From assembly GCA_009840445.1 (NCBI GenBank), contig VXNS01000038.1, positions 1 to 64,000 on the forward strand: a DNA stretch of 64,000 nt. The letters are read 5' to 3'. The DNA comes from Synechococcus sp. SB0662_bin_14. Its GTDB lineage: Bacteria; Cyanobacteriota; Cyanobacteriia; PCC-6307; Cyanobiaceae. The position numbers and the translations under genes were made by a program. Of the stretch, positions 21,510 through 60,691 are shown in pieces (positions within the stretch are counted from its first letter, which is position 1; every line of letters begins with the position of its first letter). The notes beneath the pieces were generated by a model that did no database searches, was not told the DNA's origin, and saw nothing but the letters and a program-made list of their open reading frames with translations.

Positions 21510-21716
21510 CGCCTCCTTAAGTGTCGTCCCGCACGGGCCTTGTTTTCCGATGCCCTGGGTCTGCTGGCAGAGGGAATCTTGATCCAGGGTAGCTTGAGAC
21601 CCGTCTGTCGAGACAGTCATTTTGCAAGTTTCGGACATCCCTGGAAAAGAGGCTTTCCTCAACTTACCATTAACTCCGCTCCCGCCAACGGGGCAGGACG
21701 TGTCTCGAATAATCAC

Positions 21717-42158: not shown

Positions 42159-44063
42159 TCAACCGCCCGCGTTGATAAAACTCCAGAAGCTAGGGTCGGC
42201 AGCTTCATCTGTGGCTACGGTTGGGCTCACCAGAGCGCGATCAAGGAACTCATTATGCCGCTCACAGGAGGTTTCGGCGATGAGTTCGCAGCCATGACAG
42301 GCGGCGCCATGGGTGGGGCGGATGTCAAAAGGGTGATTGGGATCGTGTTCCGAGCAGAACGGATCATTGCTGCAAAGTTGACCCCGTTCAAAAGCCTTCT
42401 CCAGGTAGGTCACAATGCGCTTGCCAGCTCCCACAAGCCCGCCGAGCGTGCCTTCTGATCCAGAGCTGCTCGTAAATAGCAAGATGCCATATCCGATTGC
42501 GCTGTTTGCATAGATCCGCTCGCGGATGGAGCTAGCCCCATAGCCACACTCCAAAGCGATTTCTGTAATCAACAGATGGCTGAGGCTATGGAGCAGCAAA
42601 TAGGGTGCGCCTGGAAAGGGGAATTGCGTGGCATTGAGTCCACGGGTTGCAAGCCACTCCCTCTTGAATGCCTCCATGAAGTTCCTGGTCCACATTGTCA
42701 CAGCATCACTTCTGTCCCAGGCCCTGATCCTGCCTGGGTCCAGTTCAATAAAGATACCCTCGCCTTTGTTTTCGCTGGCAGGAGCCCAGGTCAAGTTATT
42801 GGCCAACGGAGCTCTGCGATTGCTGCTTGTGGTGTCAATTGGCAATCCACCAAGGCTGCTGGTGCGAGGGGTAAAGCGCGTGAAACCCACCAAGGCCTGC
42901 ACTTCCCGCAGGCGATGTACCAGCAGAACCCGCTGAATGGCTTTGCGATACCAGGTAGGCGCGTCCGACGTCCGCCACACATCCGCTTCAAACAGGCTGT
43001 CTTCCGAAGAACTGGAGACCCCATCCATTGGGCCAACAAACAGCTTCAACTCCTCGTCTTTTGGCGAGGGAACTTCCGTGCCTGGTCTACCGCGCTGGGC
43101 CTCAATTTCTTGCCACAACAACACTGGATCAACGCCAGCGAAGGCGCTCTTGAGTCGGGGGTTGAACTTGAGTGCAGCCGGTACGTCAGTCTCTGCCGTG
43201 ATGCCCTCCAGGTCGTCTTTGAGTTCGCAGACGCGCTTTGCCAGTCTGTTGGCTTCTTCCGGCAGGGAGATCACCGAGAGCGTTTCCGTGAAATAGGCAT
43301 TGCTGGCCGAACGCACCAGCAAGCGGTTCCTGGTGCGTTCCCCATCGGTGATGCACATCTCGGAATCAAACCTCCCACGACCCAACCATGGGGTGCGTCC
43401 CTGGCAGTCCCCCAGGGGGTTGCTTTCGGTAACCAGGGCATCGGCAAGCTTACGTGTCACACCGCTCTCCGACTGCACATAGATCTGGGTGAAATCATTA
43501 CCCGTACCGGCCTCAAGCAGGTAGAGGCGCTCGGTGTTTTTGCAGTTGAACTGACGGAAACAAAAATCACGCCAGGGGATGTCGCTGAGATGGCCATGGG
43601 GGCAAGCCATCACAAAGCGCACCGGTACCAGAGGATACTTGCCTTCATCATCCTGGTAGCGGCGCCAGTCCTGGATGCAGCCGTCATTGAAATGCACCAG
43701 TGGCCTTGCACGGCAAGGGATTGAATCGCCCGCCAACCGCTCGCTGACTTTCTGGGCAACAGACCATTCAGGAAAACGAAAGGCCTTGATGGAGCCACTG
43801 ATGTTTCTGAGTCGATCAACTTCCTTCGGTGGTGTTTTCAAGTCCAAATGGGCTACGCCTGTTGCTTGCTGGACAAGCTGGAGTAGTCGCGGTTCATAGA
43901 CCCTGTCACAGCCTTTGTCGTCCCAAAGGTCAAGACCACCAATCAGCAAGGCGTAGTCCGGAAGGTCCACCATGGCTCCTGGGCCATACAATTGGAGCAC
44001 CTGGCTTTGTCGGGCTTGGCCGAGTGGTGGCCGGGCAGTTTGGCAGCGGGTGGATGCAGGCAT
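42159..44063 (-). CDS. drmB: DISARM protein DrmB (DUF1998)
   Basis: 634 residues. Core DISARM component found with the DrmA helicase; its DUF1998 domain is typical of helicase-partner proteins. Seen here: N-terminal QVLQLYGPGAMVDLPDYALL, CPHGHLSDIPW, PYLLLHSLSHLLITEIALECGY and a C-terminal cysteine cluster (HGAACHGCELIAETSC) that probably binds zinc. It starts 20 bases after drmA on the same strand. In DISARM, DrmA and DrmB form the DNA-binding complex that blocks incoming phage DNA. The gene is intact. Confidence 0.88.
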   Translation of the reverse strand: MPASTRCQTARPPLGQARQSQVLQLYGPGAMVDLPDYALLIGGLDLWDDKGCDRVYEPRLLQLVQQATGVAHLDLKTPPKEVDRLRNISGSIKAFRFPEWSVAQKVSERLAGDSIPCRARPLVHFNDGCIQDWRRYQDDEGKYPLVPVRFVMACPHGHLSDIPWRDFCFRQFNCKNTERLYLLEAGTGNDFTQIYVQSESGVTRKLADALVTESNPLGDCQGRTPWLGRGRFDSEMCITDGERTRNRLLVRSASNAYFTETLSVISLPEEANRLAKRVCELKDDLEGITAETDVPAALKFNPRLKSAFAGVDPVLLWQEIEAQRGRPGTEVPSPKDEELKLFVGPMDGVSSSSEDSLFEADVWRTSDAPTWYRKAIQRVLLVHRLREVQALVGFTRFTPRTSSLGGLPIDTTSSNRRAPLANNLTWAPASENKGEGIFIELDPGRIRAWDRSDAVTMWTRNFMEAFKREWLATRGLNATQFPFPGAPYLLLHSLSHLLITEIALECGYGASSIRERIYANSAIGYGILLFTSSSGSEGTLGGLVGAGKRIVTYLEKAFERGQLCSNDPFCSEHDPNHPFDIRPTHGAACHGCELIAETSCERHNEFLDRALVSPTVATDEAADPSFWSFINAGG

Positions 44064-44083: not shown

Positions 44084-47000
44084 TTAGGTGTCAGAGGTGG
44101 TCTCCCTGAAATTCACCATTCGAATCGGAACCGAAGGCTCCACATCGCGAAGGCTCCAGTTGGCGGAGAAATGCTTGTAACCCTCTGTTTGATAGATGGG
44201 GTCGTTGTCGAGTGGGGTATGGAGGAAGCCGGTCCCGGCCCCCTTCTCTTCATGGGTCCAATACTGCAACTTGGCTTCCGGCTCCTGAGCAAGCCTCCAC
44301 CAGGCCTGAAGAAGATTGACCACGTGATCATGCACATCCCTGGATAGGTGTTGAGCGTGGAGGGCGTCCGCGGCACCCGTTGCAACACAGCGGTCCTGAA
44401 GGGCTTTTGCAATCTGTTCTGTTACGCTTTTCAGAGCCTCTGATGCCATTGCACCGCTTGGGGCTGCAAGCTCCGGCTTGCTGTGGCGCGCCATGGCAAC
44501 GGCAACCCCAGGAAGGCCACGATCCAATGCCCGGCTGGCGAAGGGTGTGCAACTCGTGGCCTCCACATGGCGGTAGAAGGTCTGATGCCAATAAGGAAAC
44601 AATTCGAAGTGGGAGCGATCCCGTGGGCGGTTGGGATTCAGGAGCACCAACACCAGCCCAGGTTTGTTCCGGGTTGGATCAGGGCTCAGTTGCCGGCCAA
44701 CGCGGCTGGTGGCCTGGATGTATTCCGCGGCGGTCTTGGGCTGATTGAGGACCACCATCAAGCCCAGTCGCGAGATGTCCAGGCCCACTGAGATCATGTT
44801 CGTGGCCAGGGCCACGTCAAGATGATCCCTGTCGACGTAAGGCTTGGAGAGGCGGTCCTTGGTTTTGCTGATGGTAGCTGTGTTGACCCGTGAGGTGAGT
44901 TCCTCCGGCTCACAAGGCCTCTTCCGTGCCGCGAAGGGATTTGCAAAGTCTTCCATGGCAAGGGCGCGGTTGTTGGCGAACTGCTCCAGTTGCCCACCGA
45001 GTTCGTCTTCCAGAATGCTGCGCGTCACACCCAACTCCCTCAGACTGGAGAAGTAACCCAGGAGCGTCATGTAGGGGTCAGCCGGGTTTTCCCTTCCCAG
45101 GTTCTTGTGGTCGTTCCATGCCTTTTGTGCAGCCGCCATCAGGCCCAGGTAAGCACGCAGCAGCACACCCTTGAGGTTGCGGCCTGGAGCTGAGAGGCCC
45201 ACATACAACCGTGCCTGATCGTCGTCGTCAACAGTGCGAGAAAAGAAGATATCGTTCCGCTCAGGTCCTGGCGGTGGAAACACACGCACCTGGCTACGAG
45301 CAAACAACGCTTTGATCTGGGCTTCCGCTCGCCTGACCGTGGCGGTGGAAGCAACGATCTTGGGTGGCGGAGAGAGTGCATCCGGCATCATCAGGCATTC
45401 AATCACGGATTCATAAAGACCTGCCAGCGTTCCCAGAGGACCACTGATGAGGTGCAACTCGTCCTGGATGATCAATTCGGGCGGCAACAAGCGACCATGG
45501 GGAATTTTCCGGCCCACAGCTTCTTTCTCTGCTGGCCCCCAGAAGCCCGCCATCCCGTTGGGCGTGACCGGCTGGTAGTGGCTGACGTTGCCAAAGATTG
45601 ACGAGGTTTTACCCAGCCAGGGCAGGGCTGCGAATTTGTCGACCGTGGCGATCAAGAAACAAGGCAGGCGTCGATAGATCTGCTCATCCACGGCCAGCAA
45701 CGGCAATGGTGTTTCTCGATGGAATGGGCAGGCGCCCATGTGGGAAAACTTTTCTTTGTCCTCGCGTTTTCTCGGCTCACGACAGTAGATCTCCAACCGG
45801 TCAGGGTTCTTTGGCTTGTTTGGTAAAAGAAAGAAACCCTCGTGTTGAAGTGGGTGATTACACCAAGGGCAAGTCTCAACCGGAATCGGCCTGTTGCCTT
45901 GGCGAGTTTTCCACTGATTGAGCTTGATATACATGGATTGCTCGTCGTGCCGGTCCCCTGGTCCACCAAGCTTATTCGGGGTGGCAGTCTTCCCAACCCA
46001 CATGCCAATTTCAAACGGCCAGTCACCAAGCTGGTGTGGATGGCCGGCGTCTTTGCGGCGACGGAGACGCTCAAGCTCAAGGGCACAGATCAAGGTAGCT
46101 GCACGGCCCAACTGATCCAGGGAGAGCAGGCGTAGAGTATAGCGCATCAGCACCGTAACCCCGGCTGACACAATACCGGGATGTTTGAGCCGCCGATATA
46201 CCAACGTGAAAGCAGCCAGGCCCAGGTAAGCTTCGGTTTTGCCGCCGCCTGTGGGAAAAAACAGCAGCTCAACGGTCTCCCGATCAAGCTTCCCGTTGGA
46301 CGTTTCTGGCGCTGCTAGACCCGGCAGATTCATCAGCACAAACGCCAACTGAAAAAACCGCCAACCAGGTGTGCGGGTATTCGGAGCTGTGCCGACTTGA
46401 TCCGGCGGAACCTTGGCGTCAAACGCCATGCGTTGGCGCTGGGCCTTGGCCATTACCAGATTCATGGTGCGGAAGGCTTCCCGCACCAGGGGATTACCAA
46501 GCAGTTGGATGCCGCTGTTGATGCGCTCAGCACAGTACTGGGAATCGCTCCGAAGCTTTTTTGCCGTTTCTTTCTGCTCTTGGTTGACAATTGGGTGCTT
46601 CGGTTGCTGAAGAATCCAATCCCGGTAGGCTTGCACCATTGGCATCAAGCACCCGGTGATCCGCTCGCTTGCGGCTAAATCCGCGAGGGCTTCCATTTCC
46701 ATGGGCACGTTGATGTGCGGCGGAGGTTCCGGCAGAGTGTGGCGCACCTTGGCTGTGGGCAGCCATGTGGTGGTAAGGGTGTGGCAGCGATCAGGCTGGT
46801 TTGACGTGGCTTCCCCTTCGGTCACGGCAACATTGTGCCCGCTGGCGAAGCAGTAATCCCGCCTGTATTGCAACGCAGCAAGCTGTTCATCAGCGTCTTT
46901 ATCTGCCAACTGCAAGGCATCACGACGTGCTGAAAAGCCTGTTTCACACTTCAAACTCAACTCAACTTGAAAAGCGGAAACTGGATCACGATGACGAATC

Positions 47001-47638
47001 CGATTTGTATTTGGCGCCGGACGCCTGTTGAGTAGAAAGAGAGAGACAGACAACTGGTTACTGGGGTAGCCCAGTTTCCTTGGTGCAGGCCTGGCGATCC
47101 AGCGCAAGCACATCCCCTCGGGGTTGCTCTCAAGTGGAATGTTATCACTGGCGCCTGGTCCGTCAATTGACAGACTGACCTGCTGCCTTTGGGGGCTACG
47201 CACCCACACTTTGCTGCTGTTGTCATCCCCACCAGCAGGTGGGGCATAGTCGCCCCAGGAGGCGGTGACCGCCAGCGTAGAACCCTGCTCAAGAATGAAG
47301 CTCAGGCCCAGCGACGACGGAAACCAACTGCGCCGCGTGTTGCCCTGGTCGAGGGAGTCGTTGGCGTCCTCGTCACCCTCCTTCCTCTCAAGGCGCTTGG
47401 CTGCATCGTTGCTGGGCTCTTCTCCAGCAAGATCCAGGAACGAAAGCTGCCCGTTTTCTGAGGTACGCTTGGCTTCCTGCTGGAAGACGTGGGGCACGAG
47501 GAAGCCGGTTGTGTACCAAACCGAAGGCGGTTGTTGCAGTTGTTCATGGCGACGGGCGTGGTCGTCCCAACCCGGTCCGATCAGGTCACTGCGCAGAGCA
47601 GCCACAAGCTGTTGGCGGATTTGGGCAGAGGTGGCCAT
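44084..47638 (-). CDS. drmA: DISARM helicase DrmA
   Basis: 1,184-residue superfamily 2 helicase-like protein. The N-terminus (IRQQLVAALRSDLIGPG) is typical of DrmA. Walker A/motif I is FPTGGGKTEAYLGL around residues 461-474, motif II is LIIQDELHLISGPLGTLAGLYE, and motifs V-VI read ATNMISVGLDISRLG..QATSRVGRQ. A CPWCNHP-CREPRKRED-CPFH cysteine set suggests a zinc insertion. It is followed by drmB and preceded by a divergent ATPase-HNH pair. Complete by length and motifs. Confidence 0.9.
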   Translation of the reverse strand: MATSAQIRQQLVAALRSDLIGPGWDDHARRHEQLQQPPSVWYTTGFLVPHVFQQEAKRTSENGQLSFLDLAGEEPSNDAAKRLERKEGDEDANDSLDQGNTRRSWFPSSLGLSFILEQGSTLAVTASWGDYAPPAGGDDNSSKVWVRSPQRQQVSLSIDGPGASDNIPLESNPEGMCLRWIARPAPRKLGYPSNQLSVSLFLLNRRPAPNTNRIRHRDPVSAFQVELSLKCETGFSARRDALQLADKDADEQLAALQYRRDYCFASGHNVAVTEGEATSNQPDRCHTLTTTWLPTAKVRHTLPEPPPHINVPMEMEALADLAASERITGCLMPMVQAYRDWILQQPKHPIVNQEQKETAKKLRSDSQYCAERINSGIQLLGNPLVREAFRTMNLVMAKAQRQRMAFDAKVPPDQVGTAPNTRTPGWRFFQLAFVLMNLPGLAAPETSNGKLDRETVELLFFPTGGGKTEAYLGLAAFTLVYRRLKHPGIVSAGVTVLMRYTLRLLSLDQLGRAATLICALELERLRRRKDAGHPHQLGDWPFEIGMWVGKTATPNKLGGPGDRHDEQSMYIKLNQWKTRQGNRPIPVETCPWCNHPLQHEGFFLLPNKPKNPDRLEIYCREPRKREDKEKFSHMGACPFHRETPLPLLAVDEQIYRRLPCFLIATVDKFAALPWLGKTSSIFGNVSHYQPVTPNGMAGFWGPAEKEAVGRKIPHGRLLPPELIIQDELHLISGPLGTLAGLYESVIECLMMPDALSPPPKIVASTATVRRAEAQIKALFARSQVRVFPPPGPERNDIFFSRTVDDDDQARLYVGLSAPGRNLKGVLLRAYLGLMAAAQKAWNDHKNLGRENPADPYMTLLGYFSSLRELGVTRSILEDELGGQLEQFANNRALAMEDFANPFAARKRPCEPEELTSRVNTATISKTKDRLSKPYVDRDHLDVALATNMISVGLDISRLGLMVVLNQPKTAAEYIQATSRVGRQLSPDPTRNKPGLVLVLLNPNRPRDRSHFELFPYWHQTFYRHVEATSCTPFASRALDRGLPGVAVAMARHSKPELAAPSGAMASEALKSVTEQIAKALQDRCVATGAADALHAQHLSRDVHDHVVNLLQAWWRLAQEPEAKLQYWTHEEKGAGTGFLHTPLDNDPIYQTEGYKHFSANWSLRDVEPSVPIRMVNFRETTSDT

Positions 47639-47736: not shown

Positions 47737-49047
47737 ATGCTCCACCGTCTGCATCTGAAGAACGTGGGTCCAGCACCGGAGTTGGCCTTGGACCCGCTGG
47801 CGCTGCGCCTGAACTTGATCACCGGCGATAACGGCCTGGGCAAGAGCTTCTTGCTGGACGTGGCCTGGTATTGCCTCACCCGACGGTGGCCCCAGGAGGT
47901 GAATCCAGGCCTGACCAACGGCGCCATGGCATTGCCGAGGGATCGCAAACAGACGGCCACGTTGACGTTCACTGTGGACGGGGAGCAGCGACAAGAGAGT
48001 GAATATGCTTGCCGCTTTGATCTGGAGGAGGAGACCTGGCTTGGCAATGCCGGCCGCCCCGTGAACCCGGGGCTGGTGCTTTACGCCATGGCCGATGGCT
48101 CCTTCGCCTTGTGGGACCCGGCCCGTAACGCCTGGAAGCGCAAGGGCAACAGTGATGCGCCAGAAAAGATCAAGGCCTATGTGTTCAGCAACCAGGAAGT
48201 GTGGAGGGGCAAAGTCAATGCTGCCGACGAGCGCAACTGGCTGTGCAACGGACTGATACGGGACTGGGCCAACTGGCAGAGGGAAAACGGCGAGGCCTTT
48301 GCGCAATTGAAGCAGGTGTTAGAGGTGCTCTCTCCCGAGCCCCACATGTTGAAGCCGGGGCCACTACAACGCCTTCGTCGCGACGACGCAACCGACTACC
48401 CCACGATCATTGGCGCGGACGAGGTGCCCGTGCCGGTGGCGCATGGCTCCTCGGGCGTGCGCCGGATTCTGGCATTGGCCTACCTGTTGGTGTGGGCCTG
48501 GCAGGAGCATCAACGGGCCAGCGAACTCCTGGCCAAACCACCTTCCCGCCAGATGATCTTCCTTATTGACGAAGTAGAAGCCCATCTCCATCCCTCCTGG
48601 CAACGGCGGGTGGTGAGGGCGTTGCTGCAGGTGGTGCAGGGACTTCACCGCCAGACGACTGTGCAGCTTCTCCTGGTGACCCACTCTCCCCTGGTGATGG
48701 CATCAGTGGAACCACACTTTGACCCCAATCAGGACCGCTGGTGGGATCTGGACCTGAACCCGGAAACCAGGCGGGTGGAGCTAATCCAGCAGGACTTTAC
48801 GAGGCTGGGTGACGCCAACAGTTGGCTGCGGAGCGAAGCCTTCCACCAGGACGACACCGGCTCTCTGGAACGGGAGAAGATCCTCAGAGCAGCGCGGAGG
48901 GCCATTCATCAAATAGAGCGAGGGGAGGCCGTCGATTCCCAAGAGGTGCAGCGTCTTGAACAGGAGTTGCAGAAGGTGCTGGGGAGCACGGATCCCTTCT
49001 GGAGTCGTTGGCGTTTTGCCGAGCGGCAGGGTGGCCAGCGACCATGA
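47737..49047 (+). CDS. AAA/OLD-like ATPase, Septu PtuA-type
   Basis: 436 residues. N-terminal LKNVGPAPELALDPLALRLNLITGDNGLGKS holds the Walker A (residues 30-37); an ABC-signature-like SSGVRRILALAYLL and Walker B IFLIDEVEAHLHPSWQ follow, then a switch His in LLLVTHSPLV. This is the layout of PtuA and related defence ATPases that act with an HNH nuclease. The HNH gene begins 7 bases after its stop. Could also belong to another AAA-15 ATPase plus HNH system; Septu is the closest named type. Confidence 0.75.
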   Translation: MLHRLHLKNVGPAPELALDPLALRLNLITGDNGLGKSFLLDVAWYCLTRRWPQEVNPGLTNGAMALPRDRKQTATLTFTVDGEQRQESEYACRFDLEEETWLGNAGRPVNPGLVLYAMADGSFALWDPARNAWKRKGNSDAPEKIKAYVFSNQEVWRGKVNAADERNWLCNGLIRDWANWQRENGEAFAQLKQVLEVLSPEPHMLKPGPLQRLRRDDATDYPTIIGADEVPVPVAHGSSGVRRILALAYLLVWAWQEHQRASELLAKPPSRQMIFLIDEVEAHLHPSWQRRVVRALLQVVQGLHRQTTVQLLLVTHSPLVMASVEPHFDPNQDRWWDLDLNPETRRVELIQQDFTRLGDANSWLRSEAFHQDDTGSLEREKILRAARRAIHQIERGEAVDSQEVQRLEQELQKVLGSTDPFWSRWRFAERQGGQRP

Positions 49048-49054
49048 TTCCCAC

Positions 49055-49741
49055 ATGATTCCCATATCAATGCCACAAGAGCCGGCTTGTTTTGATTCAA
49101 CAGTGCGGCAAAGAGGCCTGGCTTTCTTGCAACGGCAAGGACAGGATCCCCAGCAGGAGCCGCAAAATGGTAGCAGTATCTGGAGAAATGGTGCTGGCAA
49201 CTTCTGGAGGGCAGTCAAGGATGAGCTACGTACAGGCTACAACAATCGCTGTGTCTACTCCTGCTTTGTCCTGGAGGAAGAGCGCCAACAGGATGGCACT
49301 CTGCGCTCAACCCATAGCATCGATCATTTTCAGCCCAGGTCTCGCAGCCCAGCTTATCTGGCTTATGAGTGGAGTAACCTGCGCTGGACCTGGAATGTAA
49401 TTGATAACGAGTGCAAGAAAGACCATCTCATCCCTGAGGAACACGATCCTATCCGACTGACTCGTGACATTATGGAGCTTAAAGAAGATGATAATGGCGA
49501 CTGGATCGTGGTTCCAGATTCGTCGCTGACCACTTCAGAACAGGAAAAGATTGGCAGGACAATTCAAGATCTGGGCCTGAATAGGCGTAGAGTGAAGATA
49601 AGACGCAATCAGTATGTCGAAGATTTTCTGGACAAGGACAACCATTACGGTTCTGACTTCATGGAAGAACGCCAACCATTTATCTATCGTGAGCTGAAGC
49701 GTTTGGGGTGGATCCAAGAAGCCAAAGAAAAAAATCTTTAA
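49055..49741 (+). CDS. HNH endonuclease, Septu PtuB-type
   Basis: 228 residues. HNH-like core: CVYSC (Cys66, Cys70), STHSIDHFQPRSRSP with His87 and His91, WSNLRWTWNVIDNEC and KKDHL. These positions match the Cys/His pattern of PtuB-like HNH nucleases that damage nucleic acid when the ATPase partner is triggered. ATG 49055 is used; ATG 49070 is also possible. It is coupled to the ATPase gene upstream. More AT-rich toward its 3' end. Confidence 0.72.
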   Translation: MIPISMPQEPACFDSTVRQRGLAFLQRQGQDPQQEPQNGSSIWRNGAGNFWRAVKDELRTGYNNRCVYSCFVLEEERQQDGTLRSTHSIDHFQPRSRSPAYLAYEWSNLRWTWNVIDNECKKDHLIPEEHDPIRLTRDIMELKEDDNGDWIVVPDSSLTTSEQEKIGRTIQDLGLNRRRVKIRRNQYVEDFLDKDNHYGSDFMEERQPFIYRELKRLGWIQEAKEKNL

Positions 49742-50331: not shown

Positions 50332-50610
50332 TCAAGGCCTTATGTGGGCCCTTTCAGGACTGTCTAGCGCTCTGATCCCGCAGCCATTAGTACGGAAATC
50401 CGTACCAAAAGCCTTGACGGCAAATGCAATCCATCGCACTGCTTCCTCAGGCCAGGCAGGGATCCAACGATCACCCCACCGGCAAACAGGGCCGGATCGA
50501 CTCAGACGGCTGGCTTTGTCGTCCTCAAGGGTAAGGCCAGCTACAGCCATGGTGACGGCATCGGCGGCCTCGATGATGTCGTAGAGGAAGACCTTGGGAT
50601 TACGCTTCAT
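50332..50610 (-). pseudogene. HepT-like toxin, truncated
   Basis: The first 30-35 residues (KRNPKVFLYDIIEAADAV..FAGLTLED-like) match the start of HepT/DUF86 HEPN RNases. After that the sequence no longer fits: the Rx4-6H active-site region is missing and the rest looks unrelated. HEPN toxins of this kind pair with an upstream MntA nucleotidyltransferase, which is exactly what precedes it, overlapping by 11 bases. Probably inactive. Confidence 0.6.
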
Positions 50611-50911
50611 AGATCAACTGCTTGCTGGCCTGAATCTCGGCCCACACATGGGGATTGTGGATGGCGCCCGCCATCACCAGGTCCACCGGTTGGTCCAGGA
50701 TACTGGCGAGTTGCTGCTCCAGACTGAAATAGGCATCCACCAAGGCCGTGGGCTCCAGAGACTGGAACTCCACCAACCAGTCCAGATCACTACAGCCCGG
50801 CTGGAAATCATCCCGCACGGCCGAGCCGAACAGGTGCATGTGCTTCACATGGTGCCGCCGGCAGGCCAGAGCGACGGCATGGCGCTGGCTGGTGGAGATG
50901 GTAAAGCTCAT
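50600..50911 (-). CDS. MntA-type nucleotidyltransferase antitoxin
   Basis: 103-residue minimal nucleotidyltransferase. The signature FGSAVRDDFQPGCSDLDWLVEF provides the GS..D-x-D metal site. Family members silence HepT by adding AMP groups. It overlaps the end of the drmMI gene by one base (TGATG-type coupling) and the HepT-like gene by 11 bases, so it would be translated with the DISARM transcript. Looks intact, unlike its partner. Confidence 0.8.
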   Translation of the reverse strand: MSFTISTSQRHAVALACRRHHVKHMHLFGSAVRDDFQPGCSDLDWLVEFQSLEPTALVDAYFSLEQQLASILDQPVDLVMAGAIHNPHVWAEIQASKQLIYEA

Positions 50912-53900
50912 CAGCGGAGATCCAGGCTCCCCCCCTGGGAAGACGGCGGGGTTTTCGGTGGCCGACCCCGCCGTCTTCCCGCCTTCCCGCTGGCCGTGGC
51001 AGCCTTCTTCTTGCCGCTGTGCAACCCCTGCGCCACCTCTTCAGCGTAGCGCTCGGCATTGAGGGCCAGCAGGCGGGCCAACACGTCATACCGCACGGAA
51101 TCGGGCCAGCGGTAACGCCAGGGCAGCGTCTTTCTGGCACTGATGGCGCCATGGGCTTTGAGTTGATCCTGAAAGTCAATGGCATCTTCAGCATTCCGGA
51201 AAAAGAGACTGCCACTATCGATCCGGTCTTGCAACTCGTCGGGAAGCTGGGTGTCTTCATCAGGATCGAGGTAATCGAGGCCAAAGCCGCAGGTGGTGGG
51301 CACATCGTGCCAGCCGTAGGCATTCAGCACGGCTTGGTCCATCTCGCTGTGGAGACGGCGCAACTCCATGATTTGGGAATCTGTTTCTTCAGGATCGTGG
51401 AAACGATTGTAGGTTTTGGTAAGACCCTCGTTGTTTTCCACCATCAGCGCGGCGCGGAATTGGTAGTAGTGCTTGCCAAGGGATTCGAGAGTCTGACGCT
51501 GGATGGCTGCTTCTTGACTTCCATGTAAATGTTCAAGAAGAGCAGCGGGAAATGGAAAAGTCTCAAAGCACGCTGATGAATTGTATCGCAGTCCATCACC
51601 TAAGGTGGCACAGTTGAACCGACTCCAATCATCATGTAGTCGTGATGTAAGAAGTCCAAATAGATCATAGGCACCTAGTCGAAAAACACACAAAGTATTT
51701 AGATAGACTTGATTGGAGGAAAGAAAAGCAAAGGAGAAGTGCTTTGTGGCCGTGGATCCTCCTGGGCAAACCAGGATATGGTCGCAGCCATCAATTGCCA
51801 GAGCAAGCTCCTTACGATCAGCTCCAAACAACCACCATTTTGCAGCTACTTGTTTGTTCCAGGCGTTCTTAGGAGGTAAGCCGATGCGTCCTGGCTTTAC
51901 TTTCCGCTCCACAATCTTCATGAGTTCTGGCCATTGATGCCGACACTCCTCTTCCCTACGTCCACCAAAGTTAATCACATAGCGATGATAAGCATGAGTG
52001 GGACTGTTGTTAACTTCCTCGCTACCGATTAAAGGGAAAATAACGTCCTGATTTTTAGGAGCTTTAGCAGTCAAGCGCTCCATCGTTTTGATTGGCGAGG
52101 GAGTCCCAGAAGTTTCGTCACTAGCATCGCTTGAGTCATTAAAAGTGAAGCCCAACCCAAACACGGTGCTGCCCTGAAAGCTCTTGCCTGCATTGGCGGC
52201 CAGTGGTTTGGGATCCTCATGGCCGCCATTGGCGAACAGAAACGCGGTGATCTTGTCCACCGACTGCCCATCCAGCCACTTCTTACCTGCATAGTTACCC
52301 TTGAGCACATGCACCACACTTACCACCACTGCCGCCACGCCGGGCCACTTGTAACGCTTGCGGGCCGCGTAAATGGCGCCGCCATGGGTACAAATCCAGC
52401 TTAGGCCTGTGCTGCGGGTATCCCCTTGGGCGATGGTGTTGGTGGCAACCAATCCCAATGATCCACCGGGCCGCAGCAAGTTAAAACAGCGGCGAAAGAA
52501 ATGGGCCACCAGGTCGGCATTGCCGTGGCTACCTTCGTGGATATGTTTGAACCAGTCGAGAATGGCGGCTGGTGAACCCTTGGCGATGGTGTTTTTGCCC
52601 GCAAAGGGCGGATTGCCAACAAATACGTCAAAGCCTGGTTGATCGCGGTTGAATACTTCTGGAAACTCCATCTGCCAATGGAAAGGGGTGATGCCGTGTT
52701 CGCCGTCTTTGAGGCGGTTGAGAAGCTGCTGCACAGCCTCATTTAAGCCTTCATCACGAAAGGCATCGCCCACCATCGCTGCGTAGACACGGGCTTTCTC
52801 TTCCCGCTCTTTGGGTTTCCTGCTGTTAAAGAAGGCCGCCACCATGAGGTCACCAACGAGCTTTAAGGGTTTGGCGTCCTCTTCTTGATGGGCTAGTTCC
52901 TGCCGCTTTTGCCAGTCTGTGGCATCGTCACGGCTATCCATGCCAAAGGTTGTCTGGCGAGCGGTGCTCAGCTTCGGCAGAACTTTTAACTGCTCGTCAA
53001 GGAATGTCAGTTGGACTTTCGAGAAAAAGTCACTGATCTCCGTGTCGCCATAGCCCACCAGGGAATCGCCACACTTGAGGGCGTGATCCACAAAGGTGAA
53101 GGGCGCGTCTTTGCTCAGTGTTACCAGCCAGAGGGATAGCTTGGCCAGATTGACAGCGAAGGGATTTTTATCCACCCCGTACAAACAGCTTTGAGCAATT
53201 AAGCGGCGGGATATAATCAAGGTTTCTTCCCCATGGGCGCCACCACCCGGTTGGAGGGCTGGCGGCAAACCCTCCCGGATCCAGGCCTGCTCCAGCAACT
53301 CCGCCAAATAACGGCAGGTCTCCACGAGGAAGGCGCCGGAGCCCATGGCCGGGTCGCAGATTTTCAACGCGAGAATCCGAGCGGCTGTGGGCTTGCGCTC
53401 ACAACGCTCCAGCCATGGCCGCAGCGCCTCCTCCACGATGGGCCGGGTCAGGGAACGGGGCGTGTAGTGGCTGCCGCTGCAACGCCGCTCCGCCGTCGGC
53501 TGAAACACCAAGCTGCCAGCGGGCTGCGGGCCATCGAAAAGCTCTCGATCAATGCGCGGCGCCAACGCCTCCAGCACGTTCGCCTCGCTGCTGGCAGTTT
53601 TCAAGGCCCGCGCTGCTTTGGTGGGCAGCTTGGTCTGGGCTTGATCCTCCAGCCATTTTTTTACGTTGGCCCCATCCAGCGTCAGCAGTGCATCAAGGTC
53701 AATGGCAGTGGTGAGTTGCTTTTTGGCGCCCTGGGGCTTGCTTTTGACGCCAATGCAGCGCCCGCCCATGCGCCGCACCTGGTAGCCCATGATGCCCTCG
53801 TACACCGAACCAATCTGCTCCACGTCCAGCGCCCGGTAGCTGATGCGCTCCCCGTTCACCACCAGCAGGTTGCGCAGCACGTTGAGCACCACCCCGTCAC

Positions 53901-55081
53901 TGAGCCACGGGGTGTCCAGCCACGGATACACCCCAGGATCAAACAACTGCCCGCGCCGCGCCGGGAGATAGTCTGCCGTGGCGCCGCCGCCGTGGAACAC
54001 CAGCCGACAGAGACTCATGAGTCCGGCCCAGGCGCCGTAGCGCTGCTCCATGGTGTCGGGGAACTCCGCAGCGTCCTGCTGGAGTTGCTCAAAGATCCCG
54101 CTCACCTTGTAGTTCTGCTCATACACCGCATCAGCAGGCATCAAGGCCTCGTCTTCCGCGTAGAGCAGAAACACCAGGCGCATCAACACCGTGATCAAAC
54201 CGCCGTAGAGCCGTTGCGGGTTCTCGTCCGGAATGAAACTCAGCAGCGTTTTCCCTGGGCGCCGGGTGGGTTGGTGCTTGCGCAAAGCCCCGCAGCAGGT
54301 CCCATAGCGCTGACAACACCTGATCCGCCAGGGTGTTGCTCACCACCGCCTGGAAGCTGCGGCTTGCCTTGAGCACGTCCGCCAGCCGGGCGCCGTCGGG
54401 ATCAAAAAACACACGGCTCTGGCCCAGCAGCAGATCCAGGGCCGAGAACATCAGCCGGCCGCTCACCTCTGCCAGTTCCTGCAACGGGAAGGTGAGATGG
54501 CCGGAACTCTCCCCCTTGGGCGCCACCACCAAGCGCAGTTGACCGCCGTTGAACAGGAACCCTGCTTCGACGCCGGTTTCCCGCAGCAATCGCTCAAAGC
54601 GCTCTTGCGGCGTGGCCCGCCATACATGCTCCCCATCACTGGTCTTCCGGTCCAGGGGCGTCAGCGGCGCCAACTCTTTCACCAGCATCTGCGCCCCATG
54701 GCCCGTCACGGCGGGGATCACGGCGGTGGGCTTCAGGGTTTCCCCCAGTTCCGGCAACGCCTTGGCATAGGCCTTAAGCTGGGTGGGATCGCTCCGGATT
54801 TGATCCTCGCTCCAGCCCAGGTGCTCCATCAATAGATCGTTCAGACGGGAGAATCCCTTGCTGTTGTCCTCCAGGTCAGCGTCCTCAGCGGGATTGAGGG
54901 GTTCCAGGGCGTCCCGATAGCGCTGTTGTCGCTCAACGAGATCACTGCCGCTGCGGGTCAACACCCAACCGGCGTCCCGGATGGCCGCCGGGGCCACCAC
55001 CAACCCCACCGGCTGCAAATAGCCCAGCCATTCCTGGTGCGCTCTCAACTCGGGGGCAACGGTGGGGGAGCGACGGGGCAT
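50911..55081 (-). pseudogene. drmMI: DISARM class 1 methyltransferase DrmMI, frameshifted
   Basis: Large adenine DNA methyltransferase of the PglX/Eco57I-like kind, about 1,390 residues if read through. The 5' part (55081 to about 54.27 kb, beginning MPRRSPTVAPELRAHQEWL) and the 3' part (from about 54.285 kb to 50911) are in different frames and join where DLLRGFAQ should meet the LLSFIPDENPQRLYGGL region. The 3' part has motif I DPAMGSGAFLVE, motif IV VGNPPFAGKNT, a target-recognition half and an AT-hook-like tail (GRRRGRPPKTPP). It would mark host DNA as self for DISARM. One indel explains the break; sequencing error or true loss are both possible. Confidence 0.8.
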
Positions 55082-55162
55082 GGCGTCAAAAAGCTGGAAC
55101 GTGTGGGAGTTGAGTTGCCTTATCGGTGGGGCAATCCTGCCATGGAGACTGATGGGGCAGCC
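54871..55162. repeat. drmMI 5'-end direct repeat, copy A
   Basis: About 292 bases, including the ATG and upstream region of drmMI, present again 1,796 bases to the right with scattered substitutions. The two copies flank the fic gene in direct orientation. Confidence 0.9.
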
Positions 55163-55195
55163 AGGAGGCTGGTAGAAACCCTATTTCCGGTTGTC

Positions 55196-56326
55196 TTATT
55201 CCCGTTGCTCCGGTTGGCTTAACACCCAACCGGCCCATGGTTGGACCAAGCGCCAAGTGCGAATGCGCTGGCCCTCCTTGGCGGGACGCAGGAAGCCCTC
55301 CCGCTCCCATGCCTTAAGCCACTCCTGGGCGGTGGTGGACGAGATGGCAAACCACCCCTCCAGGTCGCCGGGTTTGAACAGTTCGGCATGAGCCTGCCCG
55401 GCGACAACCCGTGCCCGGAGGCGGGTCAGCAACTGTTGGCTGCGCCGGTCCAACGCTTCCCAGGGGTGGGGAGCCGCTGGCTCCTGGCGGGCCTGCTGGG
55501 CCAGGGCCGCAGCCGCTTGGCACACCACATCAGTAAAAAACACCAGCCAGGGACTGTGGTCCGGATCATGGCGGCCATCGTAGAAATTGACCGGGCAGCC
55601 TAGTTGCAGGGCCGCGTAATAAGCCTCCCGATCCTTGCTGAACCACTCTTCAATGCTCAAGAACCCACGGAAGTCGTAGCCACAGCGCCCAAGGGATGCG
55701 GTGGCCAGCAAGCGGCCGCAACGGCCGTTGCCGTCGTCGAAAGGATGGATGGAGATAAAGCGATGGCTCAGCAGAGCGGCCCGCACCACGGCAGGGAGGT
55801 TCTCGCTCTCTTGCCACCACTGGCACAGTTGCCCCATCAGGGCGGGAACGCCATCGGGAAAAGGTGGAGCGTAGTCAATGCGGTGCGTCAGGTTGTCCAC
55901 CACCGGCACTTCCGTGCTGCGGTAGGGGCTGCGCTGCCGGCGACGGCCCCGTCCCCGCACGATCACCACGGCGTGAAGCTGCTGAATCCATGCCTCGCTC
56001 AGGAGCTGCTTGCTCTGAGACCAATCCTCCACCATGTCCAGGGCGCGCCAGTAGTTGCGCACCTCCTGTTCCGCTTTGCTGCCGGTGCGATCACTGCTGG
56101 CCACCGCAAGCTGCACGGCTTCATCATCCAACGGGTTGCCCTCGATGCGGGTGCTGCTGCGGGTGCTGCGCTGATAGGCCCCATGGCGCAAGCGCAAATT
56201 CTCGTCCGGGGGGAGCGGCAGGAATTCCACTACGGCGCGGGCTGCCGCCGTGGCGCAGAGATCCGCCACCAAGTGGTTGCTGTAGGTGTAGCGCGGCGCC
56301 CAGGCGGGCAGATTGGTGGCAGCCAT
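55196..56326 (-). CDS. Fic domain protein with N-terminal inhibitory motif
   Basis: 376 residues. The catalytic Fic motif HPFDDGNGRCGR is at 194-205 with His194, the residue needed to transfer AMP or another nucleotide part to a target hydroxyl. The inhibitory helix motif S-x-x-x-E-G is at 58-63 (STRIEG), which makes it a self-restrained class II Fic. A winged-helix-like tail follows (FAISSTTAQEWLKAWEREGFL). It starts 2 bases after the stop of a drmD-derived open frame and lies between drmD and drmMI. Target unknown. Confidence 0.85.
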   Translation of the reverse strand: MAATNLPAWAPRYTYSNHLVADLCATAAARAVVEFLPLPPDENLRLRHGAYQRSTRSSTRIEGNPLDDEAVQLAVASSDRTGSKAEQEVRNYWRALDMVEDWSQSKQLLSEAWIQQLHAVVIVRGRGRRRQRSPYRSTEVPVVDNLTHRIDYAPPFPDGVPALMGQLCQWWQESENLPAVVRAALLSHRFISIHPFDDGNGRCGRLLATASLGRCGYDFRGFLSIEEWFSKDREAYYAALQLGCPVNFYDGRHDPDHSPWLVFFTDVVCQAAAALAQQARQEPAAPHPWEALDRRSQQLLTRLRARVVAGQAHAELFKPGDLEGWFAISSTTAQEWLKAWEREGFLRPAKEGQRIRTWRLVQPWAGWVLSQPEQRE

Positions 56327-56328
56327 CC

Positions 56329-56877
56329 CTATCCGCTGATGGGCCAGAGATAGACAAGACCGGCGGGCTCCAGCCGGTGGGTGATCACCCGATAGCTTTC
56401 CTGAATGCGCTTCGGTTCGCTGGTGAGTTCACCTTCAATGGCTTCCAGCCCCCGTTGCCAGTGCCTCTGGTCCGCGGAGAGTTGTTGGCGCTCTTGCCTG
56501 GATAGGGTCTGAAGATCCAACGCCGGAACATCAATCTGCTCCTTTAGACCTGGAATCACCCCAAGGGGTTCTTCCACTGCGGCGGTCTTGTTCATCTTGG
56601 CCAGGTCTCGATTCCGTTGGCGCAGGGTGGCGTTGATGCGTTTGCGCTGGGATCGCAGCGCCTCCTTCAGGGCGGCGTCTTCAACGGGATTGAGGCGTTC
56701 CAGGGCATCCCGATAGCGCTGTTGTCGCTCAACGAGATCACTGCCGCTGCGGGTCAACACCCAACCGGCGTCCCGGATGGCCGCCGGGGCCACCACCAAC
56801 CCCACCGGCTGCAAATAGCCCAGCCATTCCTGGTGTGCTCTCAGCTCGGGGTCAACGGTGGGGGAACGACGGGGCAT
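56329..56877 (-). pseudogene. Chimeric frame: drmMI N-terminus joined to drmD C-terminus
   Basis: 183 codons with an ATG (56877) at the equivalent place to drmMI. The first 70 or so residues repeat the DrmMI N-terminus (MPRRSPTVDPELRAHQEWL). After base about 56667 the frame becomes a helical, charged segment ending HRLEPAGLVYLWPISG. I assign this segment to the C-terminus of a DrmD-type SNF2 helicase from remembered family ends; the cut helicase gene 1.5 kb upstream lacks its C-terminus. The chimera has neither catalytic centre. Confidence 0.6.
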
Positions 56878-56958
56878 GATGTCAAAAAGCTGGAATGTGT
56901 GTGGGTTGAGTTGCCTTATCGGTGGGGCAATCCTGCCATGGGGGCTGAGGTGGCAGCC
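56667..56958. repeat. drmMI 5'-end direct repeat, copy B
   Basis: Partner of copy A, same orientation, in the chimeric frame. The shared part runs from upstream of the ATG to the codons for about residue 70 of DrmMI. Confidence 0.9.
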
Positions 56959-57056
56959 ATGGATTAGACAAACAATGCTAAGAGTCACTGGATGGGACAG
57001 CCCTGGGGTTGGTCTGACGGTGGCCCTGGGGATGGCTCCAGGGTTTTCCTATTTAA

Positions 57057-58478
57057 TTAGCCTGTTTTTTCATTATTATAACTAAAGATCTCAAGTAATG
57101 ATTCAGCAATTCCGTTTATTTTCCAAGTGAAAATAGCATGACCTTGCTGATATAAAGGTAAGCTAATAGATAAAATTTTTCCATTAATTAATAGCTGTAG
57201 ATGTTCTTCATAATTAAGAATTATATCATTACTGGATTGTGAGCCTTCTTTCCCTTCCCACTTAAAATCTTTACCATCAATTCTAATCGATAAATTATGG
57301 TAGAATCCGCTTTCCCTTACTTCCTGGTCTACAATATTCGGGTCATTATTAAATCTAATCCATAAATCTTTATTGTCAAACATTATAGCGGCCTTTAGAT
57401 CTTCATAAGGTAAAGATATTTTATTAGAGGAAGAAATTGTTTTGCTTGATGCGATTAACCCACAGACTTCATTAAAATTATTTAGTGCTTTAATTATTTT
57501 CCACTTACAATAACCTGTAGCCCATTTTCCCTTTTCACTGTTAAAGTTACCCTTACTGATAAGATACTCCATTAGGAAAGAGTTATTTTGCTGAATGATT
57601 AATCCTAAAGGAGTTCTTTTACTCCAACCTCCCTTAGCATAGATATTTGCTCCAGAGTCAATCAATAATTTTGCTATTTCTACTTTTCCATCTTCAATTG
57701 ATTTATGTAATAAAGTCCATTCTCCAGGTAAAATTGTATAATTAGGATCTAAACCGTCCCTAGTAATTAATAGTCTTAGTTGGGATAAATTATCATTATT
57801 AATCGCATCTTTTGTCTTCATCAGAATATCAACTCTATCTTTACGATTAGAAAATGGTGACTGGGAAGGCTCTTTGGAAGTCTCATTAGAAGTCTCCTCG
57901 ATAGTTTCCTTAACTGTCTTCTTATGAAGTCTCTTTTTTAGTGGCGTTATTAATTTTTCCGTTATATTTAACATTTCTCCATAAATAAATATACAAGCTA
58001 ATGGAATTGTAATTATTTGACCAACAAAACATAAAAATATACCAAAACAGCTTACAATTGCCGCTATTGTAGATTTAATAATGAAAGATGGATCTTCAAG
58101 AGATTCTGACATTGATTCTCTGATAAGATCGAAAGGTTCGTCGTCTTTAGTAAAGACGTAATGAGAGTAAAATGGTAGAGAAGCAAAACCTAATATAGGT
58201 ATTAAAGACAATAACCAACCAACTAAAGAGCATTTAATAAATCTATTCGTAAATACTAGTGCCTTAAAGTCTTTGATAGAAGGATATTTTCCATGAACGT
58301 AGGCCATTGACAATGGGTAAAACCAGAAAACAGGAGAAAGTAAATAACCGGCAAAATGGCTAAACAGAAACAGACCTAAATTATCTGTTAATTGTGTAAC
58401 AGTTTTAGTGGCTGTGGGCTGGCCTGGAGGAAGAGAATTGGGCATGAGAATGGTTTTGTGGGCAACATATCCTACCAT
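57057..58478 (-). CDS. AT-rich membrane protein with ankyrin repeats
   Basis: 473 residues. The N-terminal half has several hydrophobic helices (LGLFLFSHFAGYLLSPVFWFYPL, the LVGWLLSLIPILGFASLPF region, AAIVSCFGIFLCFVGQIITIPL), then a Lys/Glu/Ser-rich linker and a soluble half with at least two ankyrin-like repeats (GEWTLLHKSIEDGKVEIAKL with LIDSGANIYAKGG, then RTPLGLIIQQNNSFLMEYLI). DNA is strikingly AT-rich against GC-rich neighbours, and codon use is unlike everything else here. It interrupts the drmD gene. The ATG at 58445 is an alternative start. Function unknown; recent foreign insertion is likely. Confidence 0.8.
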   Translation of the reverse strand: MVGYVAHKTILMPNSLPPGQPTATKTVTQLTDNLGLFLFSHFAGYLLSPVFWFYPLSMAYVHGKYPSIKDFKALVFTNRFIKCSLVGWLLSLIPILGFASLPFYSHYVFTKDDEPFDLIRESMSESLEDPSFIIKSTIAAIVSCFGIFLCFVGQIITIPLACIFIYGEMLNITEKLITPLKKRLHKKTVKETIEETSNETSKEPSQSPFSNRKDRVDILMKTKDAINNDNLSQLRLLITRDGLDPNYTILPGEWTLLHKSIEDGKVEIAKLLIDSGANIYAKGGWSKRTPLGLIIQQNNSFLMEYLISKGNFNSEKGKWATGYCKWKIIKALNNFNEVCGLIASSKTISSSNKISLPYEDLKAAIMFDNKDLWIRFNNDPNIVDQEVRESGFYHNLSIRIDGKDFKWEGKEGSQSSNDIILNYEEHLQLLINGKILSISLPLYQQGHAIFTWKINGIAESLLEIFSYNNEKTG

Positions 58479-58487
58479 AGTCGTCTT

Positions 58488-60611
58488 CTAGGGATGGCCT
58501 GGGGATGGCCCACGGCGCGCCCCGGCGGCCCACGTGCAGGCTCTTTGACGTTGCACCAGCGGCGAGAGGGATCCCAACTCCTTGCGGATCACCTCTGTTT
58601 TTTTCACCAACACGTCCATCACCCGATCTTCCGGGCGGTCCTCCAGCACGAAGTAGTGACACCAGACCCGAGGAGCACGCTGCAGTTTGCGATCAATCCG
58701 GCCGTTGCGCTGCTCAAGCTTGCCGGGATTCCAGGGAATGTCAAAATGGATCAGGTGGCGGCAGTGATTTTGCAGATTGACCCCCTCCCGGGCCGCATCG
58801 GTGGCGATCAAGATCCGCAGCGGCTCCTCTTCCGGATCGGCGTTGAATCGAGCCTTCAACCGCTCCCGGCTCTCGTCGCCCATGCCACCGGTGAAAGAAG
58901 CAATGCGGCGACTGGCGTCGTCATCTCCCAGAAGCACACGCAGTTGACGCTCTAAATAGCGCTTGGTATCGACGTAGTCGGTAAAAATCAACAGGCGCGT
59001 TGGCGCCCATCTTGCCTGAGCCTCTCCGAGATTGTGGCAGAAGTGCTGGCGTAAAAAAGCCTCCAGCTTGTGGATGCGTGGATCCGGGCGGTAGCGATTT
59101 GCTTCAGCGATTGTCCCCATGGCCTCCAGCATGTCCAAATCGCTCTGATTGGTGTCCACCGTCTCCCGCAGGGCAGCGCGGGTCTGGGCGGCCTCCATGG
59201 TGAGCAGCTCATCTTCCGGGAGCTCGGCAGTATCGCTGTCCCGATCAGCGCCACCCCGTAGGAGATCCAGAGATGCTTCCGCAGCCGCCAAAGCCCCATG
59301 ACGTTGCTGCTGCCGGGCTTCCATGGTGTTTGCGTGTACCTTGAGCGTGCGCGCAAAGGCCTCAATGGAACTGAGCAGACGCTTTTGCAGATTGGTGGTC
59401 ACCAACCGGTCGGCATTGCGCTGGCGTTTGCTGGCCCCCTCTTGAACCAGGCGCTGCTGCCGTTGTTTGCAGTATGCCTGCAACAGCCTTGACAGTCCCA
59501 GTTCCGGGGTCTCGGTTGGCAGGCTTCCTCTGGGAATGGTGAGCGGCTGCACCACACGCTCGGGGAATTCCTCGCCAAGGCGCCGCAAGTCGTCCTTCAG
59601 GCGCCGCACCAGAACGCTGTTCAGATCCCTGGGGTTAAACGGCACACCGCGCACAAAGCGCGTTGGATCCAGCAGTTCCAACAGCGCGGTGAAGCTGTTG
59701 CTGTGGCCGTTATGCGGAGTGGCCGAGAGGAACAGCCGGTGCTCGAACAGGGGCGCCAGATCCCTGAGGCTGCGCGTCAGACCAGAATCAACTGCATAGC
59801 GCAGGGTGTTGCCGGCGGGTGCAGCGTTATGGGCCTCATCCAGGATCAACAGCGACTGCAGCGGCGCCCGATTCTCCCCACATTTGCCTTCCTCAAGCCA
59901 CACCCGCAGCGGTGCCGCATATTCCGAATGACGCAAGAGCGCATGGGAAATCAGAAAGCGGCTATGGGTGCTCCAGGGATTGGCGCCGTAGCCGCGCTCT
60001 TGGCGCACTTTGGCCACATAGGCCCGGTCCATCACCGTGAACGCCAAGCCGAAGCGGTTCGCCATCTCCTCCTGCCACTGCCGCAGCACTGAAGGTGGGC
60101 AACTGATCACGACCCGCTTGATCCGCTGCCGCAACAGCATCTCCCGCAGAATCAAGCCAGCCTCAATGGTCTTCCCCAAGCCAACGTCGTCAGCGATAAA
60201 CAGACCCACCCGCGGCATCTGCAGGGCCTTACGCAGTGGTTCCAACTGGTAGGCCTTCACGTCAATTCCCGCCCTGTAAGGGGCCTGGAAAAGGTGGGCG
60301 TCCGTGGCGGTAACACAGTTCCAACGGAGAGTGTTGATATAAGCGGCGAACTGCTTGGGTTGGTCAAATCCACGCTGGGCCACGGCCTCCCAACTGCTTT
60401 CCCCAAGCACTGCAAAGTCGATCTCCCGCTCTCGGAACACCGTCAGCCGGCCGCCAATGGCGTCATCTTCCATGCAAGCCATGGAGACCACCGTGTCCCC
60501 ACCTGGTTCCAGGGGAGCTTGCACGTCTTCCACCAGATAACGGCGGGTACGACAACGGACCACGGCTCCCGGCTTGAGCTTGGTGTGGGGTTGGGTGGTG
60601 ATCGTGGTCAT
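58488..60611 (-). CDS. drmD: DISARM class 1 SNF2-like helicase DrmD, C-terminally cut
   Basis: 707 residues with a full SNF2 helicase core: motif I DVGLGKTIEAG (142-152), DEAH box (258-261), LSATPHNGHSN, then late motifs around DAAREGVNL and LEQRNGRIDRKLQ. The N-terminal region (LFQAPYRAGIDVKAYQLEP) matches DrmD. Normal DrmD runs several hundred residues further; here the frame ends soon after VKKTEVIRKEL with a short, unrelated tail, just before the AT-rich ankyrin gene. Core ATPase might fold, but the DISARM C-terminal domain is missing. Divergent from mnmG with 80 bases between starts. Confidence 0.82.
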   Translation of the reverse strand: MTTITTQPHTKLKPGAVVRCRTRRYLVEDVQAPLEPGGDTVVSMACMEDDAIGGRLTVFREREIDFAVLGESSWEAVAQRGFDQPKQFAAYINTLRWNCVTATDAHLFQAPYRAGIDVKAYQLEPLRKALQMPRVGLFIADDVGLGKTIEAGLILREMLLRQRIKRVVISCPPSVLRQWQEEMANRFGLAFTVMDRAYVAKVRQERGYGANPWSTHSRFLISHALLRHSEYAAPLRVWLEEGKCGENRAPLQSLLILDEAHNAAPAGNTLRYAVDSGLTRSLRDLAPLFEHRLFLSATPHNGHSNSFTALLELLDPTRFVRGVPFNPRDLNSVLVRRLKDDLRRLGEEFPERVVQPLTIPRGSLPTETPELGLSRLLQAYCKQRQQRLVQEGASKRQRNADRLVTTNLQKRLLSSIEAFARTLKVHANTMEARQQQRHGALAAAEASLDLLRGGADRDSDTAELPEDELLTMEAAQTRAALRETVDTNQSDLDMLEAMGTIAEANRYRPDPRIHKLEAFLRQHFCHNLGEAQARWAPTRLLIFTDYVDTKRYLERQLRVLLGDDDASRRIASFTGGMGDESRERLKARFNADPEEEPLRILIATDAAREGVNLQNHCRHLIHFDIPWNPGKLEQRNGRIDRKLQRAPRVWCHYFVLEDRPEDRVMDVLVKKTEVIRKELGSLSPLVQRQRACTWAAGARRGPSPGHP

Positions 60612-60691
60612 CCCTCCTTCAGCAGTTTGATGATGTTGAGAGGATTTGGCCGACGCTTCAGCACCAGCGCAGCCCCGCTTAAAGTGGAACC

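What the first reader, a model, noticed from the sequence alone, without database searches (positions are those of the whole stretch)
57057..58478. Membrane-ankyrin protein with composition unlike all neighbours
This gene is very AT-rich in a GC-rich region and combines three or more membrane helices with ankyrin-like repeats. Ankyrin proteins are abundant in sponge symbionts and are thought to affect host cells, but here it sits in a defence operon. It could be a host-interaction gene, a membrane effector of defence, or a passenger.
Basis: partly seen in the sequence, partly recalled or inferred. Interest (0 to 1): 0.6.

Follow-up and report, generated by a model that had tools for sequence, protein, structure and literature searches.

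The report
Membrane-ankyrin gene inside a dead helicase
A very AT-rich gene for a membrane-anchored ankyrin protein sits as a passenger inside the broken helicase gene of an anti-phage system, so its place in a defence operon says little about what it does.

Summary
The gene at 57057-58478 (-) (likely start 58445, 462 aa) is 32% GC (GC3 0.24) among neighbours with GC3 0.53-0.79. It has 3-4 membrane segments, three well-predicted ankyrin repeats and a weakly modelled C-terminal beta domain that resembles the IalB fold.

The surroundings are a DISARM operon (drmB, drmA, drmMI, drmD) with Septu and Fic genes. A same-genus genome has this operon with intact drmD and no such gene. In the window, 930 bp of drmD (residues 690-992 of 1116) are replaced by 1862 bp: a copy of the drmMI 5' end, the ankyrin gene and short GC-rich fillers. 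The drmD truncation junction recurs in another genus member. drmMI also carries a 2-bp frameshift.

So the gene is most likely a passenger in a decayed defence locus, not a defence effector. It looks native to the genus, not contamination: its membrane domain is a genus family, standalone in three genomes and a pseudogene elsewhere in this genome. The full architecture was found in 1 of 10 genus genomes. Function is inferred only: an inner-membrane-anchored ankyrin binding protein, possibly symbiosis-related.

The parts
57057..58478 (-). AT-rich membrane-ankyrin gene (ORF 473 aa; probable start 58445, 462 aa)
57921..58445 (-). N-terminal membrane domain, residues 1-175; homologous to a standalone 161-aa genus family
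   Evidence: 58-60% identity to L033, L010, L011; three hydrophobic stretches
57516..57806 (-). ankyrin repeats, residues 214-310
   Evidence: Pfam; predicted fold with pLDDT 90-97 over residues 201-300; Foldseek top hits ankyrin/DARPin
57060..57467 (-). C-terminal beta-rich domain, residues 327-462, IalB-like fold (weak)
58488..60611 (-). drmD N-terminal remnant (707 aa; residues 1-689 homologous to intact drmD)
   Evidence: PADLOC DrmD 1.7e-254
56332..56703 (-). drmD C-terminal remnant (residues 993-1116 of intact G004 drmD)
56663..56962 (-). extra copy of the drmMI 5' end, fused in frame to the drmD C-terminal remnant (chimeric ORF 56329-56988)
   Evidence: 93.3% to own copy at 54867-55163 and 93.3% to G004
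57025..57036 (+). 12-bp direct repeat CCTGGGGATGGC, left of the insert
58498..58509 (+). 12-bp direct repeat CCTGGGGATGGC, right of the insert
58508..58544 (.). GC-rich filler at the drmD truncation, shared with G005:C44 (95% over 37 bases)
55196..56326 (-). Fic gene of the operon (also between drmD and drmMI in G004)
50911..55081 (-). drmMI, split into two ORFs by a 2-bp deletion relative to G004
44084..47638 (-). drmA
42159..44063 (-). drmB

Best explanation
The gene is a passenger that landed in, or was carried into, an already decaying DISARM operon. drmD lost residues 690-992 and gained GC-rich filler plus a copy of the drmMI 5' end (shown by comparison with G004; that this came by illegitimate recombination is inferred). 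The AT-rich gene sits in that filler, on the operon strand, 10 bp after the drmD remnant, so it may be read from the drmD promoter (inferred). Its product is most likely an inner-membrane protein: a 3-4 helix anchor from a genus-specific small membrane family (shown by homology), a cytoplasmic linker and three ankyrin repeats that bind a partner protein (fold predicted, side of the membrane and partner inferred), and a C-terminal IalB-like beta domain (weak evidence). It probably works as a membrane-tethered protein-binding adaptor rather than as part of phage defence.
For: DISARM operon with intact drmD (1116 aa), Fic and drmMI in G004:C40, no ankyrin gene. Window drmD lacks 930 bp, replaced by 1862 bp. 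drmD found in 4 of 10 genus genomes at 53% identity or more, intact in 1. drmMI frameshift. Junction shared with G005:C44. Membrane domain 58-60% identical to standalone genes in G005, G006, G009 and homologous to a C36 pseudogene in the same genome. dN 0.16, dS 1.13 against the pseudogene copy over 87 codons. Ankyrin fold. No phage, plasmid or viral-contig relative.
Against: No expression data. The order of events (truncation before insertion) is not proven: G005's contig ends at the insert boundary, so its neighbouring sequence is unknown. The 12-bp flanking repeat could be a common intergenic word: 2 of 500 random window pairs with the same spacing share 12 or more bases. DISARM without full-length DrmD might still act, as DrmD is called a less-conserved component (PMC9142583, passages). 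The membrane domain model is only moderately confident (10-residue means of pLDDT 47-83) and its orientation was not tested. In G009 the standalone membrane gene lies next to what I read as type I restriction genes, so a link to defence loci is not fully excluded.
Confidence: 0.65

Rival explanations
1. A symbiosis (host-interaction) protein: the ankyrin/IalB-like part acts on sponge cells, for instance against phagocytosis, and its genomic place is incidental.
For: Ankyrin matches are numerous in this genus (Ank_2 in 10 of 10 genomes, 6-44 matches each); a paper's table lists ankyrin proteins in all six Ca. Synechococcus spongiarum genomes studied (PMC6506613, passages). The C-terminal model aligns best with Bartonella IalB, Z 9.1.
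Against: A multi-pass anchor makes export unlikely; no secretion signal or secretion system was tested; the IalB-like match rests on a model of pLDDT 51.8 and there is no Pfam hit; the sponge host itself is inferred.
Confidence: 0.25
2. A membrane effector that replaced DrmD function in a remodelled DISARM or acts as an abortive-infection partner.
For: Same strand and 10 bp from the drmD remnant; a long open frame kept intact; weak PADLOC PDC-M72A match 4.4e-4.
Against: The PADLOC match covers only ankyrin residues 254-320; drmD and drmMI are both broken; the only intact operon lacks the gene; full architecture in 1 of 10 genus genomes.
Confidence: 0.06
3. Assembly chimera or contamination placed foreign AT-rich DNA in this contig.
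For: Sharp composition change at both edges; the insert itself is in one assembly only.
Against: A homologous pseudogene of 33% GC lies on another contig of the same genome, between genes I read as cyanobacterial; the drmD-side junction recurs in G005; the repeat copy at 56663-56962 differs by 7% from the other copy, unlike an assembly duplicate.
Confidence: 0.05

Closest known systems
Standalone 161-aa membrane protein downstream of acs (name from my reading) in genus relatives G005, G006, G009/L033
   Same: 58-60% identity over the whole membrane domain
   Different: no ankyrin repeats, no C-terminal domain; GC 0.40-0.46 instead of 0.32
Bacterial ankyrin-repeat proteins of sponge symbionts
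   Same: ankyrin repeats in a genome of a genus rich in them
   Different: only about three repeats, fused to a multi-pass anchor and a beta domain
IalB (invasion-associated locus B) fold, PDB 3dtd
   Same: best structural match of the C-terminal model, Z 9.1, rmsd 3.2 over 112 residues
   Different: 11% identity, no Pfam match, model confidence low, here fused to a membrane-ankyrin protein
Class 1-type DISARM operon (drmD, drmMI, drmA, drmB; class recalled)
   Same: the gene lies within this operon
   Different: not a known component; it interrupts drmD

Membership tests
Ankyrin-repeat protein | repeats above Pfam cut-off | tested here: met
   Ank_2 33.5 bits (cut-off 27.3), Ank 27 (21.1), Ank_3 26.5 (22.3)
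Ankyrin-repeat protein | ankyrin fold | tested here: met
   pLDDT 90-97 over residues 201-300; Foldseek best hits ankyrin/DARPin, best E 1.0e-3, prob 1.00
DISARM component | gene conserved in the operon of relatives | tested here: not met
   absent from intact G004 operon; full architecture in 1 of 10 genus genomes
Functional class 1 DISARM | intact drmD and drmMI | tested here: not met
   drmD lacks residues 690-992; drmMI frameshifted
Transposable element | transposase gene in the insert | tested here: not met
   only the membrane-ankyrin ORF fills 57037-58497
Transposable element | target-site duplication | tested here: inconclusive
   12-bp direct repeat at 57025 and 58498; 4 copies of the word in the genome; 2 of 500 random pairs do as well
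IalB family | Pfam or NCBIfam match | tested here: not met
   no match for the C-terminal 165 aa nor for that part of the full protein (one search gave one weak unrelated match at E 0.15)
IalB family | IalB fold | tested here: inconclusive
   Z 9.1, next row 6.1, but model pLDDT 51.8
Genus membrane-protein family (standalone 161 aa) | full-length homology | tested here: met
   58-60% identity, 161 aligned codons

The most novel reading that the evidence does not exclude
The gene is a new chimeric symbiosis protein, an inner-membrane anchor fused to ankyrin repeats and an IalB-like domain, moved as a one-gene AT-rich cassette flanked by 12-bp repeats into restriction and defence loci of this genus, with the loss of DISARM as the price or the opportunity.
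Probability: 0.1. Interest if true: 0.6.

Novelty: new variant of a known kind. Interest (0 to 1): 0.35.

Why it matters
It warns against reading function from a defence neighbourhood: the operon is broken exactly where the gene sits, and counts that call DISARM from drmA/drmB alone would score it as intact. It also suggests how ankyrin architectures arise in this genus, by fusion of a local membrane protein with ankyrin repeats and a beta domain.

Tried and rejected
Contamination: rejected because a homologous pseudogene of the same composition is on contig C36 and one drmD junction recurs in G005. Phage or plasmid origin: tblastn in phages and plasmids and a viral-contig scan gave no relative. 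Transposon: no transposase; the inverted-repeat search gave only short pairs, nearly all inside the AT-rich part. Origin of the two GC-rich fillers: no match in the ten genus genomes beyond G005:C44 and short words. The genome-contig scan gave one locus, L033, which is the G009 contig by length and position. The C-terminal domain: Pfam nothing, NCBIfam nothing relevant, Foldseek only weak mixed hits with IalB not among its 50 listed rows (best E 0.034), VIA-align second look gave IalB first. My IalB suspicion came first from a motif recalled from memory. A search with the related secreted protein L094 matched 4 of 60 genomes at E 0.01, three of them in the genus, not the window's own genome. 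I asked whether AT-richness marks foreign DNA; the genus copies of the membrane family are all AT-rich (GC 0.30-0.46), so composition alone decides nothing. A paper search for DISARM with cyanobacteria and sponge gave 23 papers, ten listed, none of those titles on this subject (listing only); searches were seen as listings, too.

Full report
What is there. The ORF 57057-58478 on the minus strand codes for 473 aa. Homologues, and the DNA homology with a copy on contig C36 (window 57953-58450), begin at the internal ATG at 58445, so the protein is probably 462 aa. Its GC is 0.321 and GC3 0.243, whereas eight neighbouring genes have GC3 from 0.534 to 0.785, and the lowest 1-kb GC value of the window lies here. 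The coding frame fills the AT-rich block, which runs from about 57050 to 58440.

Domains. Residues 1-175 hold three hydrophobic stretches, the last 45 residues long, so 3-4 membrane segments. Residues about 214-310 match ankyrin models above the curated cut-offs and solved ankyrins. AlphaFold2 gives pLDDT 90-97 for residues 201-300; the mean for the whole protein is only 63.8, with low values in residues 320-462. Foldseek's best hits are ankyrin and designed ankyrin proteins. The C-terminal part has no Pfam match, but pairwise BLASTP relates it to two secreted-looking proteins of the genus, L089 (6e-8) and L094 (9e-7) (found at E 0.0074 and 0.145; signal peptide by my reading). A model of it alone is weak (pLDDT 51.8); among 1000 chains re-aligned, Bartonella IalB (3dtd) stands first with Z 9.1, rmsd 3.2, 112 residues, next row Z 6.1. 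Plain Foldseek did not list it among its 50 best. The IalB-like fold is a lead, not a result.

Surroundings. PADLOC models name the neighbours: DrmD (58488-60611), DrmMI (50911-55081, two ORFs), DrmA (44084-47638), DrmB (42159-44063), a Fic protein (55196-56326), and a PtuA-type Septu gene on the plus strand (47737-49047). This is a DISARM operon.

The gene interrupts drmD. In genus member G004 (contig C40, locus L064) the same operon has an intact drmD of 1116 aa, then Fic, then drmMI of 1391 aa. Blastn shows L064 1236-7442 = window 50494-56682 (91.9%) and L064 8373-10443 = window 58545-60615 (93.0%); the 930 bp between are replaced in the window by 1862 bp. By protein, the window keeps residues 1-689 and 993-1116. 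The replacement consists of a 300-bp copy of the drmMI 5' end (56663-56962), about 75 bp of filler, the AT-rich insert, and 35-45 bp more filler. The repeat copy is 93.3% identical to the window's own drmMI 5' end and 93.3% to G004's, so it is neither a recent duplicate nor an assembly echo.

Other genomes. Of ten genus genomes, drmD homologues at 53% identity or more occur in four: G000, G003, G004 and G005 (rows at 30-38% I take for other helicases and dropped). Only G004's is intact; G003's is in pieces, and G005 has two broken copies. G005's copy on C44 stops at the same residue 689 and its contig begins with the same filler (95% over 37 bases, window 58508-58544). So the truncation is real and older than the split of G000 and G005, or was exchanged between them. 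In G005's assembly no gene of this architecture was found, but the contig ends at the very boundary of the insert, so absence there is not proven.

Flanking repeat. CCTGGGGATGGC occurs at 57025-57036 and 58498-58509 in direct orientation and 4 times in the genome. No shuffle of 500 gave a 12-base match between the flanks, but 2 of 500 random window pairs of the same spacing did. It may mark a target duplication or recombination at a short dispersed word; I leave it open.

Origin of the gene. The membrane domain belongs to a family of the genus: standalone 161-aa genes lie next to the end of an acetyl-CoA synthetase gene (acs, named by my reading of the ORF, no family search) in G005, G006 and G009, a fragment in G004, and a frameshifted copy on C36 of this genome. 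Weaker relatives, about 225-280 aa, occur elsewhere in the family (13 of 388 genomes of the class matched at 1e-3, own genome included). All genus copies are AT-rich for their genomes (GC 0.30-0.46), so the composition is partly a family trait. Against the C36 copy dN is 0.158 and dS 1.13 over 87 codons: the membrane domain was under purifying selection for much of its history; against the standalone genes dS was saturated and gave no value. The complete three-part architecture was found only here: no other place matched both the membrane and the ankyrin part.

Function. Shown: the place, the break, the kinship of the membrane part. Predicted with good confidence: the ankyrin fold. Inferred: inner-membrane anchoring with the ankyrin part in the cytoplasm; partner binding; possible reading from the drmD promoter. 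That DISARM is inactive is inferred from the damage to drmD and drmMI; a structural paper on DISARM calls DrmD a less-conserved component (PMC9142583, passages), so a residual DrmAB activity is possible. A comparative paper on sponge cyanobacteria lists ankyrin proteins in all six Ca. Synechococcus spongiarum genomes (PMC6506613, passages); that the window comes from this group is my inference, not a looked-up name.

Verdict. The gene is best seen as a passenger in a decayed defence operon, with an unusual but explainable domain fusion. Interest 0.35.

Noticed in passing
window 56329-56988: Chimeric ORF: drmMI start fused in frame to the drmD C-terminus, made by a 300-bp copy of the drmMI 5' end.
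   Followed up: yes
window 54275-54291: 2-bp deletion relative to G004 splits drmMI into two overlapping ORFs.
   Followed up: yes
window 47737-49741: Septu-like pair (PtuA 4.5e-163 and a possible HNH protein) nested on the opposite strand between drmA and drmMI.
   Followed up: no
window 55196-56326: SoFic-like Fic gene between drmD and drmMI, also in G004; an extra member of this DISARM operon in two genomes.
   Followed up: partly
window 50332-50911: Small nucleotidyltransferase gene (Pfam 4.2e-9) with a short partner ORF, a toxin-antitoxin-like pair, next to drmMI.
   Followed up: no
L065 (G005:C93) 970/971: Another rearrangement joins drmD directly to drmMI, so this operon looks like a recombination hot spot in the genus.
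   Followed up: partly
L002 about 2073-2202: MITE-like element with inverted ends GGCACCTCGAAAAATT next to the membrane-gene pseudogene on C36.
   Followed up: no
L033 8499-12088: In G009 the standalone membrane gene is followed by what I read as type I restriction genes (hsdM-like, hsdS-like); in G005 by another gene.
   Followed up: partly
window 19691-21737: Second lower-GC patch (ORFs at 46-48% GC) in the window.
   Followed up: no
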